From NCBI GenBank assembly GCA_016839865.1, contig JAEOTN010000148.1, forward strand, positions 1 to 5,064: 5,064 bases of DNA. Reading direction: 5' to 3'. The DNA comes from Promethearchaeota archaeon. Its GTDB lineage: Archaea > Asgardarchaeota > Lokiarchaeia > Sigynarchaeales > MK-D1. The notes under the pieces are model-generated. The model was not told where the DNA came from. It did no database searches and worked only from the letters and a program-made list of their open reading frames with translations. A program made the position numbers and the translations under genes. Shown here one piece after another: positions 1-4,803 of this stretch; the stretch's first letter is position 1, and every line of letters starts with the position of its first letter.

Positions 1-2591
1 ACAGAGATTATAACTTATGTATTCTTTGTGGAAGATGTGTTCGAGTTTGTAACGATTTACGAGGAATTAGTGCCATTAATTTTATGCATCGAGGTCATGA
101 AACGAAAATCTCAACAGGTGGAGATGTACCATATATAGATTCTAACTGCATTTATTGTGGTTCATGCTTGGATGTTTGTCCGACTGGCGCATTGTCATCC
201 AAAAATACCAAGTGGGTAAAGAAATCAGAGAAAAATCAAACACATTCCTCTTGTACTTTTTGCAGCGTAGGCTGCGGTTTTAATTATTACACCGTCGATG
301 AAGAATTAATGGAGTCGATTCCAAGTAAACAAGACCGTGTAAATAAAGGACAAGGTTGCCTACTCGGAAGATTTTGTACTCCACAATTCATGAATAGTAA
401 ATCCCGTTTAAAGTATCCCACGAGTCAAGATGAAGACTCAATGGTTCCTAGGACGTGGGAAGAAGTTTATGATTTCCTAAAGGAGAAATTATCTGCTTAC
501 AATCCTGAAGAAATTGCGTTAATAGCTTCTCCGGACCTAACCAATGAATCTGCTTATCTTCTGAACAAATTTGGGAACGAAATACTCAAAACCCCAAATA
601 TTGTATTATCCACAGATTTCATACCTATTATTAGTCAAAATGAGCATTCGTTTGACAATATATCAAAATCTCAATGGATTTTACTTCTGAACGCAAATGT
701 TCAATTAACTCATCCTGTGCTATTGGTGCGAATAAAACAAGCTAAAGATAAAGGAGCAAAAATTCTTTCGTTGAATATGGGGGATGTAGATCTACCTTAT
801 GAGACTCGAAATCTGATTGATATCGAATTAAATCTACCAATTCAAGATGCAACTTCAGTTCTTTTTGCAATGTTGGGAACACAAAATAAGTTATTATTAC
901 GAGATCTTGGTTTAAAAATTGATGAGCATGTTTTAGAACGGCAACACCTAACTCAATTCGTGGAATTACGTCGTTATCAGACAGGTTCTGTTATAATAGG
1001 AAATTACGTCAATCTACCCCCCTTATATGTCAATGAACTGCAAAAATTAGTCTTTACACTAGCATCTGAGGGAGAAAGTAAAATAACGTGTTTTGGTTTA
1101 TGGAATCATGGAAATCTTAATGGAGTTTCGAAATTTATCAAGAAACCTATAACAGAAATCAAGGAAGACATTAAATCAGGAGTAATTAAAGCACTTATCA
1201 CTACAGAAAGACTAGATGATCTGATTACCGATAAACTAGAGTTTCTCACCGTGCTCGATGTATTTGAATCCGATTTTTCAAATAAAGCAGACGTTGTATT
1301 ACCTATCACTAGCTTTACTGAACAATCCGGTCATACTACCAATGCGGAATTAGTTACTAGGGAACTTAAAGAATCGGCTGCACCATTGGGGAATTCAAAA
1401 CCTGATTGGCTTATATTTACTGAATTAGCACAAAAATTCGAAGCTGGAGCAGGATTCAAATATAAGAATTCTGATGAAATTGACGAAGAAATAAAACAGC
1501 TTAACATAGATGAAACACCGAAAGAAATGAATTTCAAGGATATATTGAAGATCCCCGTTGAGGAAAATTATCCTAAATTTAAATTAAGCGATTTTCAACA
1601 TAGAGGTCAAAAAATTGCTCAATTAGTTCCCGATTTTAAATTTTTAATTGATAACAAAAGTGGAGTCAGTGAAGAACCATCGAAAACTCCAGAAGAAGAA
1701 ACCACTGATTTTAAAGTAGTTCACATTGAGGAAAATGTTCCCAACGTATTCAAATTGGTAGTTCATGCTCCATTACTTGCGAAGAAAGCAAAACCGGGTA
1801 ATTTTGTATTAATTATGGCAAAAGAAACCAGCGAGAGAATACCTATTACACTGTCAGATTGGGATGAAGAGGCTGGAACTGTAACATTTTTCTTCCAAGA
1901 GAGGGGATACTCCACCAAAGAATTATCTGAAGTAAAATCAGATGGATATCTCCATAGCTTAGTAGGGCCATTAGGTAATTCAGTTGAACTTGAAGAAGGA
2001 AAAACAATATTACTTGGTGCAGGATGTTATGGAATTGCAGCAAATTTCGCTTTGGCAAAAGCAGCGAAAGCAATGGGTAACAAAGTGATTGCTATCATTG
2101 AAGGTAAATCTAGCGATATTATTTACCTTCGCGAAGAATATGAGAAACTTGTAGACAAATTGGTAGTTGTCACTCCAAGCGGTTCTGGAGGGTATAGGGG
2201 AAATGAACATGGTAAAATCACCACTGGAATCGAAATTGTTTCTCAAACGGAATCTATAGATGTTGCATATTTCGTAGGGTGCAAAATGATGATGATGGAG
2301 GCTTCTAAGGCAACGGAAAAATTGAAAATCCCAACCTTTGTAAGTCTTGATACGATTATGCTTGACGGAACTGGTATGTGTGGGGCATGTAGATTAACAT
2401 TAAATGATGATGGAAGAAAAATTACTAAGTTTGCTTGTGTTGATGGACCAATTTTCGATGGTCACAAAGTTGATTGGGACGAACTCATGAAGCGTGCTGT
2501 TTCATTCGACCATGAAGAGGTTGAAGTGTATCGGAGTAATTCTTGCAAAGCAATTGCCAAATTCAATTCAGAACAGGAGGGATCCTCATGA
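1..2591 (+). CDS. FDH/NuoG-like iron-sulfur protein fused to NfnA module (5' partial)
   Basis: The frame is open from the left edge (first full codon at nt 3), so the N-terminus is missing and Met at nt 84 is internal. Residues below count from nt 3; 862 are visible. Residues 1-65 form a 2x[4Fe-4S] ferredoxin domain (C6, C9, C12, C16; C49, C52, C55, C59), like that of NuoG and FDH alpha subunits. Residues 84-125 are the [4Fe-4S] entry of the molybdopterin-oxidoreductase fold (C84, C87, C91, C119). Residues 130 to about 490 are a shortened molybdopterin fold that includes a DVVLP...SG..TN segment near 430-447 and KPDW at 466-469. The active-site Cys/Sec-His segment is absent, the lysine after C119 is Leu121, and no C-terminal pterin-binding domain follows. 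After a Glu/Pro-rich linker, residues 569-862 are NfnA-like: flavin motif RIPITLSD (612-619), then D788, C793, C796 and C812 for [2Fe-2S]. The likely role is a cytosolic electron conduit plus small subunit of an Nfn-type bifurcating oxidoreductase with the next gene. True formate dehydrogenase activity is unlikely. By family comparison, a [2Fe-2S]/His-Cys N-terminus probably lies upstream. Confidence 0.9.
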   Translation, partial: RDYNLCILCGRCVRVCNDLRGISAINFMHRGHETKISTGGDVPYIDSNCIYCGSCLDVCPTGALSSKNTKWVKKSEKNQTHSSCTFCSVGCGFNYYTVDEELMESIPSKQDRVNKGQGCLLGRFCTPQFMNSKSRLKYPTSQDEDSMVPRTWEEVYDFLKEKLSAYNPEEIALIASPDLTNESAYLLNKFGNEILKTPNIVLSTDFIPIISQNEHSFDNISKSQWILLLNANVQLTHPVLLVRIKQAKDKGAKILSLNMGDVDLPYETRNLIDIELNLPIQDATSVLFAMLGTQNKLLLRDLGLKIDEHVLERQHLTQFVELRRYQTGSVIIGNYVNLPPLYVNELQKLVFTLASEGESKITCFGLWNHGNLNGVSKFIKKPITEIKEDIKSGVIKALITTERLDDLITDKLEFLTVLDVFESDFSNKADVVLPITSFTEQSGHTTNAELVTRELKESAAPLGNSKPDWLIFTELAQKFEAGAGFKYKNSDEIDEEIKQLNIDETPKEMNFKDILKIPVEENYPKFKLSDFQHRGQKIAQLVPDFKFLIDNKSGVSEEPSKTPEEETTDFKVVHIEENVPNVFKLVVHAPLLAKKAKPGNFVLIMAKETSERIPITLSDWDEEAGTVTFFFQERGYSTKELSEVKSDGYLHSLVGPLGNSVELEEGKTILLGAGCYGIAANFALAKAAKAMGNKVIAIIEGKSSDIIYLREEYEKLVDKLVVVTPSGSGGYRGNEHGKITTGIEIVSQTESIDVAYFVGCKMMMMEASKATEKLKIPTFVSLDTIMLDGTGMCGACRLTLNDDGRKITKFACVDGPIFDGHKVDWDELMKRAVSFDHEEVEVYRSNSCKAIAKFNSEQEGSS
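2575..2580 (+). promoter_or_regulatory. Shine-Dalgarno site for nfnB
   Basis: A perfect AGGAGG lies 7 nt before the ATG at 2588, inside the 3' end of the upstream gene. It decides the nfnB start at 2588 over the in-frame ATG at 2543, which has no such site. The resulting ATGA overlap of stop and start suggests translational coupling and fixed subunit stoichiometry. Confidence 0.85.
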
Positions 2592-4018
2592 GTGCTCCAA
2601 CACCCAAACCAGCACGTAAGAAAAGGGTAATATTACCAAGACATAAAATCCCTGAGCAAGATCCACACCTTCGAGCAAAAAATTTCAATGAGGTAAACTT
2701 GGGATATACTCCAGAAATGGCATTTGCAGAAGCTTCACGATGTTTACAATGCCCTAAACCTGCTTGTCAGCAAGGATGCCCAGTAGGAGTAGACATTCCA
2801 GGATTTATTAAACTAATTCGAGAAAATGATTTCATAGAAGCATCTCATCACATCAAAGAAACTAATGCTCTTCCTGCTGTGTGTGGACGAGTGTGTCCTC
2901 AAGAGAATCAATGTGAAGGTAGTTGCGTTTTAGGAAAATCGAAAAAATATAAACCAGTCGCAATTGGGAACTTAGAAAGATTTGTAGCAGATGCTGAAAG
3001 GGCAACTAATGCATGTTATATCTGTGAAAAAGATCCTCCTACAGGAAAGAAAGTCGCAATTATTGGATGTGGACCTGCAGGATTGACAGTAGCTGGAGAT
3101 CTTACTAAGAAGGGACATGGAGTGACAATCTTCGAGGCTTTTCACAAAGGAGGAGGAGTATTAGCTTATGGTATTCCGGAATTCCGTCTTCCGAAGGAAA
3201 TAGTAAATTGGGAAATCCGGGAACTAGTTGAGAATGGAGTTCAAATCAAATATAACACGATAGTTGGAAAACTCATAACCATTCAAGAACTTAGAGATCA
3301 AGGTTTCGATGCGATATTCATTGGGATTGGAGCAGGATTACCGAGATTTATGGGAATTCCTGGAGAAAATCTCAAAGGAGTCGTATCAGCTAATGAATAT
3401 TTGACTCGTTCGAATCTTATGAAGGCATTTGATTTTCCAAATTATAAAACCCCTCCACTACGAGGAAAAAATGTTGTAGTTGTAGGAGGTGGCAATGTTG
3501 CAATGGATTCTGCTCGAACTGCTTTGAGAAGCGAAGCAGAAACTGTGACAATCGTATATCGACGTGCAATGGAACAATTACCGGCTCGAGTTGAAGAAGT
3601 TCATCATGCTCAAGAAGAAGGTGTTATTTTTAATCTTTTGACTAATCCCATCCAATTTATTGGAGGTGAAAAGGGTAACCTCATTGAAGCTGAAGTCCTT
3701 CGGATGGAATTGGGAGAACCTGACGCATCTGGAAGAGCACGACCTGTACCAATTGAAGGCTCGGAATTTCGGGTCAAGTGTGACCTCGCAATTATTTCTA
3801 TTGGGAATAATAGTAATCCATTACTTACTGGAACAATGCCTGAATTAGAATTGAATCGTTGGGGAAATATTGTGACTGATGAAAATGGATCTACAAACTT
3901 ACCTGGCATATATGCGGGTGGAGATATTGTTACTGGTGCAGCAACGGTTATCTCGGCAATGGGCGCTGGAAGAAGAGCTGCTAACGCAATCCATGAATAC
4001 TTGATAAAACCAGAATAA
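2588..4018 (+). CDS. nfnB: NfnB: NADPH/ferredoxin-type bifurcating oxidoreductase large subunit (GltD-like)
   Basis: This 476-residue protein is full length for the NfnB / glutamate-synthase-small-subunit-like family. In characterised NfnAB enzymes this subunit carries the bifurcating FAD, two [4Fe-4S] clusters and the NADPH site, and couples NADPH oxidation to reduction of ferredoxin and NAD, or the reverse. The N-terminal Fer4_20-type domain shows IPEQDP (21-26), RCLQC, and eight cysteines in two groups (52, 55, 60, 64 and 99, 103, 109, 113). The FAD Rossmann motif is G160-x-G162-x-x-G165. The NAD(P)H fold has GGGNVAMD (300-307) and YRR (324-326), where arginines are expected to meet the 2'-phosphate of NADPH. 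The FAD-closing motif YAGGD (442-446) is followed by an Ala/Gly-rich helix. The start at 2588 is chosen from the Shine-Dalgarno site and because family members begin shortly before PEQDP. It overlaps the upstream NfnA fusion by 4 nt, so both products should form one cytosolic complex. Without that context it could be called a glutamate synthase small subunit, but no large GltB subunit is visible and NfnA is adjacent. Confidence 0.93.
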   Translation: MSAPTPKPARKKRVILPRHKIPEQDPHLRAKNFNEVNLGYTPEMAFAEASRCLQCPKPACQQGCPVGVDIPGFIKLIRENDFIEASHHIKETNALPAVCGRVCPQENQCEGSCVLGKSKKYKPVAIGNLERFVADAERATNACYICEKDPPTGKKVAIIGCGPAGLTVAGDLTKKGHGVTIFEAFHKGGGVLAYGIPEFRLPKEIVNWEIRELVENGVQIKYNTIVGKLITIQELRDQGFDAIFIGIGAGLPRFMGIPGENLKGVVSANEYLTRSNLMKAFDFPNYKTPPLRGKNVVVVGGGNVAMDSARTALRSEAETVTIVYRRAMEQLPARVEEVHHAQEEGVIFNLLTNPIQFIGGEKGNLIEAEVLRMELGEPDASGRARPVPIEGSEFRVKCDLAIISIGNNSNPLLTGTMPELELNRWGNIVTDENGSTNLPGIYAGGDIVTGAATVISAMGAGRRAANAIHEYLIKPE

Positions 4019-4242: not shown

Positions 4243-4803
4243 TTGACTGATTCTACAGAAAAACAAAAAATGCTAGCAGGGGAATTATATTTTGCTGGAG
4301 ATCCTCTGTTGATAAGGGAACGTGTGAATGCCCGTAGGTTAACTCGTCAATTCAACTTAAGTTCTGAGACGGAACTAAAGAAACGGAATTTCATTCTTAA
4401 GGAACTTTTAGGAAAGTGGTCAAACGGAGTATACATTGAATCCCCTTTTCGCTGCGATTATGGTTATAATATATTTCTGGGAGAATGGGTGTATATGAAT
4501 TTTGGATGTGTTTTTCTAGATGTGAATCCGATCACTATTGGAGAACATACTATGCTAGGACCGTATGTACAGATTTACACAGCTACACACCCATTAGAAG
4601 CAGAAAAACGATGTGAAGGTCCTGAATCAGGTAAACCTATCACTATTGGGAGTAGATGTTGGATAGGAGGGGGAGTGATTATTAACCCAGGTGTGACGAT
4701 TGGAGATAATACAACAATTGGAGCTGGTTCAGTGGTTACCAAAGACATCCCACCAAATGCTTTTGCAGCAGGAAATCCATGTGAAGTAATAAAAGAATTA
4801 TAG
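4243..4803 (+). CDS. maa: Maltose/galactoside-type O-acetyltransferase (Maa/LacA family)
   Basis: This 186-residue protein is the usual length for maltose O-acetyltransferases, which transfer acetyl from acetyl-CoA to a sugar hydroxyl; the true sugar here is unknown. The N-terminal Mac domain is clear: EKQKMLAGELY (6-16), RARRLT-like NARRLT (29-34), then FRCDYGYNIFLG (69-80), which is nearly invariant in the family. The left-handed beta-helix follows as hexapeptide repeats (ITIGEH, ITIGSR, VTIGDN, TTIGAG). The catalytic histidine is H116 in YTATHP, and WIGGG (140-144) followed by NPG forms part of the acetyl-CoA site. The end is the typical GNPxxVIKEL. The TTG start is preferred because the residues before MLAGELY match the usual family N-terminus and AGGTG lies upstream; starting at ATG 4270 would remove them. 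It should be a soluble cytosolic trimer, as for the family. No pathway partner is visible, and it may be expressed independently of the nfn operon. Confidence 0.92.
   Translation: MTDSTEKQKMLAGELYFAGDPLLIRERVNARRLTRQFNLSSETELKKRNFILKELLGKWSNGVYIESPFRCDYGYNIFLGEWVYMNFGCVFLDVNPITIGEHTMLGPYVQIYTATHPLEAEKRCEGPESGKPITIGSRCWIGGGVIINPGVTIGDNTTIGAGSVVTKDIPPNAFAAGNPCEVIKEL

What the first reader, a model, noticed from the sequence alone, without database searches (positions are those of the whole stretch)
1..4018. FDH/NuoG-like module fused in frame to NfnA and paired with NfnB
Nfn enzymes as characterised are two-subunit NfnA/NfnB complexes. Here one continuous frame joins a NuoG/FDH-alpha-type Fe-S and molybdopterin-fold module to a full NfnA module, with NfnB overlapping by 4 nt. 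The visible chain holds three [4Fe-4S] sites, then FAD and [2Fe-2S] in NfnA, with two more [4Fe-4S] sites and FAD in NfnB. That resembles other bifurcating complexes in which an Nfn-like flavoprotein is combined with Nuo-type parts (for example the Sporomusa-type transhydrogenase), but with a different wiring. It could link bifurcation to a third redox partner such as a hydrogenase, a formate dehydrogenase or another Nuo-like subunit.
Basis: partly seen in the sequence, partly recalled or inferred. Interest (0 to 1): 0.75.

Follow-up and report, generated by a model that had tools for sequence, protein, structure and literature searches.

The report
Asgard enzyme joining two electron splitters
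An Asgard archaeon carries part of a large, widespread but apparently undescribed enzyme that joins two different kinds of electron-splitting machine, in which the usual NADH-binding pocket of one partner seems to have been rebuilt with two cysteines and an acidic residue.

Summary
In detail: one open frame (3-2591) joins a NuoG/FDH-like module, cut at its 5' end by the window edge, to NfnA; NfnB overlaps it by 4 nt. It is no chimera: 67-69% identical full-length fusions exist in Asgard genomes. Two things were missed. (1) In relatives the genes directly upstream are BfuC (NuoE-like) and a complete BfuB (NuoF-like, bifurcating type), giving BfuC-BfuB-[BfuA~NfnA]-NfnB; the same set, fused or not, occurs in several bacterial phyla. 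The FDH-like site has lost its catalytic Cys. (2) NfnA of this complex has changed at three NAD(H)-loop positions, Gly/Gly/Pro to Cys/Glu/Cys (window C675, E700, C760); no mixed form in 460 NfnA rows, one side of a branch in a tree. NfnB, the NfnA fold and the [2Fe-2S] ligands are unchanged. Best reading: a Bfu-family transhydrogenase whose NfnA flavin no longer uses NAD(H) but is wired into BfuA, putting two bifurcating centres in one enzyme. The wiring, and whether Cys-Glu-Cys holds a metal, an Fe-S cluster or a disulfide, are inferred. I found no paper describing it. New variant of a known kind.

The parts
3..2591 (+). BfuA/NuoG-like module fused to NfnA (862 aa in window; 5' end cut, about 166 aa missing)
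3..1667 (+). BfuA part: 2x[4Fe-4S], N7-like [4Fe-4S], inactive molybdopterin-type fold
18..50 (+). C6, C9, C12, C16: first [4Fe-4S] site
147..179 (+). C49, C52, C55, C59: second [4Fe-4S] site
252..359 (+). C84, C87, C91, C119: N7-like (Molybdop_Fe4S4) site
1668..1709 (+). linker between BfuA and NfnA parts (corresponds roughly to low-confidence residues 720-729 of the P0001 model)
1710..2588 (+). NfnA part (FAD domain, altered NAD domain, [2Fe-2S])
2025..2030 (+). C675-Y676: G-C-Y-G in place of the NAD(H) loop GGGxGxA
2100..2102 (+). E700: Glu in place of the conserved Gly after strand 2 of the NAD domain
2280..2282 (+). C760: VG-C in place of VG-P
2364..2438 (+). D788, C793, C796, C812: [2Fe-2S] ligands of Asp(Cys)3 type, as in NfnA
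   Evidence: ligand type from PMC8097209 (passages)
2575..2580 (+). AGGAGG, ribosome-site-like, inside the end of the fusion, upstream of NfnB
2588..4018 (+). NfnB (476 aa), 4-nt overlap with the fusion, cluster ligands and R200 kept

Best explanation
The window holds the last two genes of a Bfu-family electron-bifurcating complex, BfuC-BfuB-[BfuA~NfnA]-NfnB, most likely of a Lokiarchaeota-type Asgard archaeon. It works as a ferredoxin/NAD(H)/NADP(H) transhydrogenase with two bifurcating centres. NADPH reacts at the NfnB flavin, which splits electrons: one goes down the two NfnB [4Fe-4S] clusters to ferredoxin, the other over the NfnA [2Fe-2S] to the NfnA flavin. There the pair is not given to NAD+ but crosses the Cys-Glu-Cys site into the BfuA cluster chain (probably first the N7-like cluster in the dead FDH fold) and reaches the BfuBC FMN/Fe-S centre, which exchanges it with NAD(H) and ferredoxin. 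All steps reversible. Shown by sequence: gene order in relatives, ligands, loss of the FDH catalytic Cys, replacement of the NAD(H)-loop positions, repeated fusion. Inferred: the window's own upstream genes, complex formation, the wire, the cofactor at Cys-Glu-Cys, the direction.
For: Gene order: of 27 loci looked at, 22 have BfuB, BfuA and NfnA in that order on one strand and 21 of these have NfnB directly after; L113-L116 likewise, fused. BfuB of the nearest relative scores 797 bits to the bifurcating A. mobile HydB and 404 to Nqo1; its eight C-terminal ferredoxin Cys are complete in 28 of 30 BfuB. FDH catalytic Cys absent in 52 of 53 rows, yet the N7-like Cys are unchanged in every row that holds them, also in 525-556 aa BfuA. 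Cys/Glu(Asp)/Cys versus Gly/Gly(Ser)/Pro without mixed forms. NfnB R200, seven cluster Cys and E106 in 49 of 49 linked NfnB. Fusion of BfuA to NfnA needs 3 changes on the NfnA tree, and starred branches force 3. The three residues lie at the ends of three strands of the NAD domain in the P0001 model.
Against: BfuC and BfuB are outside the window and known only from relatives. L019 has the whole set with an FDH-like Cys motif and Gly/Gly/Pro NfnA, so linkage does not require Cys-Glu-Cys; P0053 has Cys-Glu-Cys with an intact-looking FDH, so it does not require a dead FDH. L018 has no NfnB next to NfnA and L026 no BfuBC in the held stretch. In Stn the C1/C2 clusters of the FdhF-like domain are called a non-functional remnant (PMC10482914, passages). 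NfnB shows no change that would force a new partner. No distances could be measured: the model tool gives no coordinates, and no complex was modelled.
Confidence: 0.5

Rival explanations
1. Stn-like wiring: NfnB feeds BfuA through its own [4Fe-4S] clusters, and the altered NfnA site reduces a different small acceptor, for example by a disulfide on the Cys pair.
For: In StnC the NfnB-like domain is wired through C7-C6-C5 to BfuA-type clusters (PMC10482914, passages). Two Cys and an acid beside a flavin would suit a redox disulfide. P. furiosus NfnII also has an altered NfnA NAD site with unknown acceptor (PMC8097209, passages).
Against: NfnB shows no matching change at its clusters; repeated BfuA-NfnA fusion suggests that NfnA, not NfnB, is the direct partner.
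Confidence: 0.2
2. NfnA still binds NAD(H) in a changed way; BfuA is only a scaffold or an extra input and NfnAB is an ordinary Nfn.
Against: Three loop positions exchanged together without mixed forms; NAD_binding_1 found in 5 of 5 canonical and 0 of 5 Cys-Glu-Cys NfnA given.
Confidence: 0.15
3. Two independent enzymes share an operon, and the fusion only keeps their amounts equal.
For: In L018 and L026 one half lacks its neighbour.
Against: Fusion in one chain needs 3 changes on the tree; fixed gene order in archaea and bacteria; Cys-Glu-Cys goes with linkage but for L019.
Confidence: 0.1
4. A formate dehydrogenase linked to Nfn.
For: FDH-like fold; P0053 and L019 keep an FDH-like Cys motif.
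Against: Window: catalytic Cys and the PF01568 domain absent.
Confidence: 0.02

Closest known systems
Sporomusa-type transhydrogenase StnABC / Nfn-Bfu / Nfn-ABC (PDB 8oh5, 9bov; 9n5u by its match pattern)
   Same: BfuBC core plus a NuoG/BfuA with dead FDH-type fold plus a GltD/NfnB-type NADP(H) flavoprotein.
   Different: There the NfnB-like domain is part of BfuA and no NfnA is described (PMC10482914, PMC9304861); 9bov_A and 8oh5_C match both our NfnB and our NuoG part. Here NfnA is fused to BfuA and NfnB is a separate subunit.
Canonical NfnAB (PDB 5jca, 4ylf)
   Same: NfnB cofactor ligands and Arg; NfnA fold and Asp(Cys)3 [2Fe-2S].
   Different: NfnA NAD(H)-loop positions Gly/Gly/Pro are Cys/Glu/Cys; NfnA sits on BfuA.
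Bam-Bfu (benzoyl-CoA reductase complex)
   Same: Proposed to hold a Bfu core plus a second bifurcating module, HdrA (PMC9304861, section 5).
   Different: Second module is HdrA, not NfnAB.
Hydrogenedentota sub-type I BfuABC [FeFe]-hydrogenase
   Same: [quoted passage not shown]
   Different: Hydrogenase; extra domain on BfuB; no NfnA mentioned in the passages seen.
P. furiosus NfnII (5vj7)
   Same: NfnAB with altered NfnA NAD site, acceptor unknown (PMC8097209, passages; that 5vj7 is NfnII is recalled).
   Different: Loop is GAYTG and VGP, no Cys-Glu-Cys.

Membership tests
Bfu family (Schut 2022) | BfuBC core with the full set of Fe-S sites and FMN domain | tested here: met
   In relatives only: BfuC 2Fe-2S_thioredx; BfuB 51K, SLBB, NADH_4Fe-4S, Fer4; Cys sets in 30 BfuB, C-terminal eight complete in 28. 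The window does not reach these genes.
Bfu family (Schut 2022) | BfuA with 4Fe-4S and [2Fe-2S] domains | tested here: met
   4Fe-4S sites in window; N-terminal [2Fe-2S] Cys complete in 49 of the 50 relatives whose N-terminus is held, one Cys gapped in L111.
Bfu family (Schut 2022) | bifurcating activity | not testable with these tools
   needs protein
canonical NfnAB | NfnB: two [4Fe-4S], FAD/NADPH domain, Arg at N5 of the bifurcating FAD | tested here: met
   (R200 aligns with P. furiosus R201)
canonical NfnAB | NfnA: FAD domain and Asp(Cys)3 [2Fe-2S] | tested here: met
   FAD binding by fold and alignment only
canonical NfnAB | NfnA NAD(H)-binding loop | tested here: not met
   Cys/Glu/Cys instead of Gly/Gly/Pro; PF00175 not found in the window or in 5 of 5 Cys-type relatives given
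StnABC / Nfn-Bfu | NfnB-like domain within BfuA | tested here: not met
   NfnB is a separate gene
formate dehydrogenase alpha | catalytic Cys/Sec and Molydop_binding domain | tested here: not met
   P0053 as positive row
complex I subunit NuoG | membership in an 11-14 subunit membrane complex | tested here: inconclusive
   Neighbours were matched only to the five module references; few others were named

The most novel reading that the evidence does not exclude
The NAD(H) pocket of NfnA was rebuilt, once in evolution, into a Cys-Glu-Cys metal or Fe-S (or redox-disulfide) site that connects two mechanistically different bifurcating centres, the NfnB FAD and the BfuBC FMN/Fe-S site, in series in one soluble complex, changing the ferredoxin:NAD(H) ratio per NADP(H) to about 3:1.
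Probability: 0.33. Interest if true: 0.85.

Novelty: new variant of a known kind. Interest (0 to 1): 0.6.

Why it matters
How the Bfu FMN/Fe-S centre bifurcates is not settled (PMC9304861, PMC11406978), and which acceptor the altered NfnA of P. furiosus NfnII uses is stated to be unknown (PMC8097209). A complex that carries both a classic-looking NfnB flavin site and a Bfu core, with one sharp three-residue switch separating it from ordinary Nfn, makes both questions testable by exchanging three residues. It would also name a candidate NADP(H)-balancing enzyme of Lokiarchaeota-type Asgard archaea: in G092 and G003 the operon NfnB (84%, 68% identity) was the only close NfnB found, other long hits being 35-38% (draft genomes).

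Tried and rejected
Rejected: assembly chimera or frameshift (same joint in P0001, P0002 and others). Active FDH in the window. A selenocysteine reading: one motif pattern for the catalytic site with Cys, Sec or stop, run over loci L001-L122, matched with a sense Cys only in L019 and (two separate genes) L026, plus one chance match with TGA in L042. The extra Cys triplet of BfuA as a mark of the Nfn-linked type: it also occurs in L001, L118, L012, L019, L075 and P0053. Pfam NAD_binding_1 as a sole marker: weak, see rival 2.

Led nowhere: scans of genome contigs and viral contigs with the window protein alone found no relative; the alignment scan then gave 80 loci. VIA-align rows covered mainly residues 1-721.

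Counting notes: linked/solo labels came from BfuB or NuoG hits in the same held stretch. Of 220 NfnA domain rows 170 were labelled linked or fused and 50 solo. Of the 50 solo, 4 were Cys-Glu-Cys (L031, L099, L103, L104), all on stretches of 2.4-3.3 kb where neighbours may be cut off. Of the 170, 5 were Gly/(Gly or Ser)/Pro: L019 is a true exception; in L052 BfuABC lies on the other strand; L119, L120, L122 are second NfnA copies in another gene pair; one row had a gap. The 115 fused protein rows were best hits to the window itself and so are not an independent sample; some rows are near-copies of each other. The 240 later rows are best hits to L018 and L019, so each set is close kin of its query. 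The tree used 102 rows: 21 of the 115 protein rows and 22 randomly kept canonical solo rows (24 dropped). Of the 27 loci the five without BfuB-BfuA-NfnA in order are L001, L012 (contig ends), L026, L059 and L075.

Full report
What is in the window. The window (5064 bases, G+C 36.8%) holds one long frame 3-2591 and NfnB 2588-4018 with a 4-nt overlap, then a sugar O-acetyltransferase 4243-4803. No whole genome is held for it. The best relatives are Asgard proteins: P0001 (69%), P0002 (67%, named Candidatus Lokiarchaeot... by its source), P0003 (Promethearchaeota, partial), so the source is most likely a Lokiarchaeota-type Promethearchaeote (inference from similarity). P0001 and P0002 are 1027 and 1029 aa; about 166 aa of the N-terminus lie before base 1.

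The fusion is real and repeated. Of the best 120 proteins, 115 passed a simple fused filter. In the tree of 102 NfnA domains the fused state needs 3 changes and starred branches force 3: once in the Asgard set with the window, once in a bacterial set, once in P0053 (quick search, SH-aLRT only).

The neighbourhood. In the nearest locus held, L113 of genome G092, the order is BfuC (170 aa), BfuB (597), fusion (1029-1040), NfnB (475), with fusion 67% and NfnB 84% identical to the window. L114, L115, L116 and L066 have the same fused order; L117 and L012 end inside the BfuA gene; L013, L119, L120 and L122 have BfuC-BfuB-BfuA-NfnA-NfnB with NfnA as its own gene; L121 ends inside BfuB; L001 and L118 have BfuB and BfuA but no NfnA. 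Of the 27 genome-contig loci examined, 22 have BfuB, BfuA and NfnA in order, 21 of them with NfnB next. Record titles of such loci name Desulfobacteraceae, Hydrogenedentes, Aminicenantes, Bacteroidales, Zixibacteria, Opitutales, Cloacimonadota, TA06, Thorarchaeota and Lokiarchaeota; a Methanothrix draft genome has the parts in two incomplete pieces (L018 without NfnB beside it, L026 without BfuBC in the stretch). In a search of 227 genomes of the phylum with the fusion, 144 had a match at E 1e-30 or better, in the rows listed mostly to NfnA alone (list cut).

BfuB is of the bifurcating kind. Pfam shows thioredoxin-like [2Fe-2S], 51K, SLBB, NADH_4Fe-4S and 4Fe-4S domains. Against PDB sequences the L113 BfuB scores 797 bits to A. 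mobile HydB (7t2r_B), 746 to 9n5u_B, 732 to HydB 7q4v_B, 404 to Nqo1. In 30 BfuB sequences C437, C454, C457, C460, C500 are present in 30 and the eight C-terminal ferredoxin Cys in 28; L002 and L006 have a GltD-like tail there instead. Which Cys hold the B2 cluster I did not test.

BfuA is not a formate dehydrogenase here. In a 53-row alignment only P0053 has the catalytic Cys (39 rows another residue, 13 a gap); the PF01568 domain is not found in the window. The six Cys/His sets of BfuA, including the N7-like set, are unchanged wherever the stretch is held: of 58 rows, 53-58 hold the N7-like columns and all letters there are Cys. This includes BfuA of 525-556 aa (L119, L120, L122, L008, L011), with 241-260 aa left after the N7-like site. 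I take this as a sign that the cluster still carries electrons (inference).

The NfnA switch. Three positions separate the complex's NfnA from ordinary NfnA: third Gly of GGGxGxA to Cys, Gly after strand 2 to Glu (3 times Asp), Pro of VGP to Cys. Of 220 domain rows, 168 have Cys at both Cys positions (Glu 165, Asp 3), 51 have Gly and Pro (middle Gly 49, Ser 2), one has a gap. Of 240 more, 120 are Cys-Glu-Cys and 120 Gly-Gly-Pro, each set gathered with a query of that type. No mixed form was seen. With these columns and one neighbour removed, Cys-type and canonical NfnA still part at one branch, SH-aLRT 97. In the model of P0001 (mean pLDDT 83.8, pTM 0.81) the residues C840, E865 and C925 stand at or just after the ends of strands 833-838, 859-866 and 919-923, the nucleotide edge of this fold by general knowledge of ferredoxin reductase-type domains. 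Pfam NAD_binding_1 was found in 5 of 5 canonical NfnA and 0 of 5 Cys-type NfnA given, ten that I chose; it is also absent from the precomputed annotation of L019-type NfnA.

What is unchanged. NfnB: Cys 52, 55, 60, 64, 103, 109, 113, E106 and R200 are the same in 49 Cys-linked and 42 canonical NfnB; R200 aligns with P. furiosus R201, whose bond to N5 of the NfnB FAD is stated in PMC10482914 (passages). StnC is reported there to have lost bifurcation at this flavin; whether this NfnB kept it is an inference from the residues.

How it works. I commit to: NfnB flavin bifurcates; its high-potential branch runs over NfnA into BfuA instead of to NAD+; BfuBC exchanges electrons with NAD(H) and ferredoxin. 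With the approximate in vivo potentials in PMC9304861 Table 1 (NADPH -380, NADH -280, Fd -500 mV), such wiring moves electrons to ferredoxin and NAD in ratio 3:1, mean -445 mV (my arithmetic); so the favoured direction would be NADPH formation, 4 NADPH from 3 reduced ferredoxin (2e each) and 1 NADH. This is an inference to be tested, not a result.

What is known. I read sections 4 (part 1 of 2) and 5 (all) of PMC9304861 and passages of PMC10482914, PMC7483475, PMC6405883, PMC8097209, PMC11406978 and PMC5736913. None of what I read describes BfuBC with BfuA~NfnA and NfnB. Ten text searches gave listings with no title or abstract start that does; figures, supplements, most subscription papers and preprints were not seen, and two papers on the ordinary Nfn enzymes were not held.

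Co-occurrence. In six fused-lineage genomes the operon NfnB was the best NfnB in five (68-84%); G096 has a second at 53%, and in G091 the contig ends before NfnB. NfnA-like hits elsewhere were 33-41% (57% for one short piece) and were not resolved. Completeness of these genomes is not stated.

Verdict. Real, widespread, apparently undescribed; a new variant of the Bfu family with a clear sequence switch. Mechanism plausible, not shown.

Noticed in passing
window 4243-4803 +: Sugar O-acetyltransferase (Mac cap plus hexapeptide repeats), TTG start as called; no link to the complex seen.
   Followed up: no
P0053 (1229 aa): Intact-looking FDH alpha (Cys motif, PF01568) fused to a Cys-Glu-Cys NfnA: possibly a formate-linked version of the same complex. 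Genomic context not seen.
   Followed up: partly
L019 2902-11666: Dehalococcoidales operon: BfuC, BfuB with GltD tail, BfuA with FDH Cys motif and PF01568, NfnA of Gly/Gly/Pro type with loop GGFAVA, NfnB.
   Followed up: partly
L002 6237-9458; L006 6357-9488: BfuB whose C-terminal ferredoxin pair is replaced by a GltD/NfnB-like domain, with a second separate NfnB downstream.
   Followed up: partly
L001 1851-4766; L118 2608-5592: Asgard BfuA without NfnA but with a C-terminal extension ending in a 4Fe-4S dicluster; partner unknown.
   Followed up: no
L119 14421-16253; L120 14127-15974: A second NfnA fused behind a further domain (Pyr_redox_2 in L119), 610-615 aa, followed by its own NfnB, in the same stretch as the Bfu-Nfn operon.
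   Followed up: no
P0001 residues 124, 127, 133 and relatives: An extra CxxCxxxxxC triplet after the His-Cys motif of BfuA, in 50 of 50 rows that hold it; possible additional Fe-S or metal site.
   Followed up: partly
L024 about 5474: Stop in the BfuA frame of one Bacteroides-labelled draft genome, in a Cys-rich stretch that looks like the Fe4S4 motif; not at the FDH catalytic position.
   Followed up: no
[not shown]
   Followed up: no
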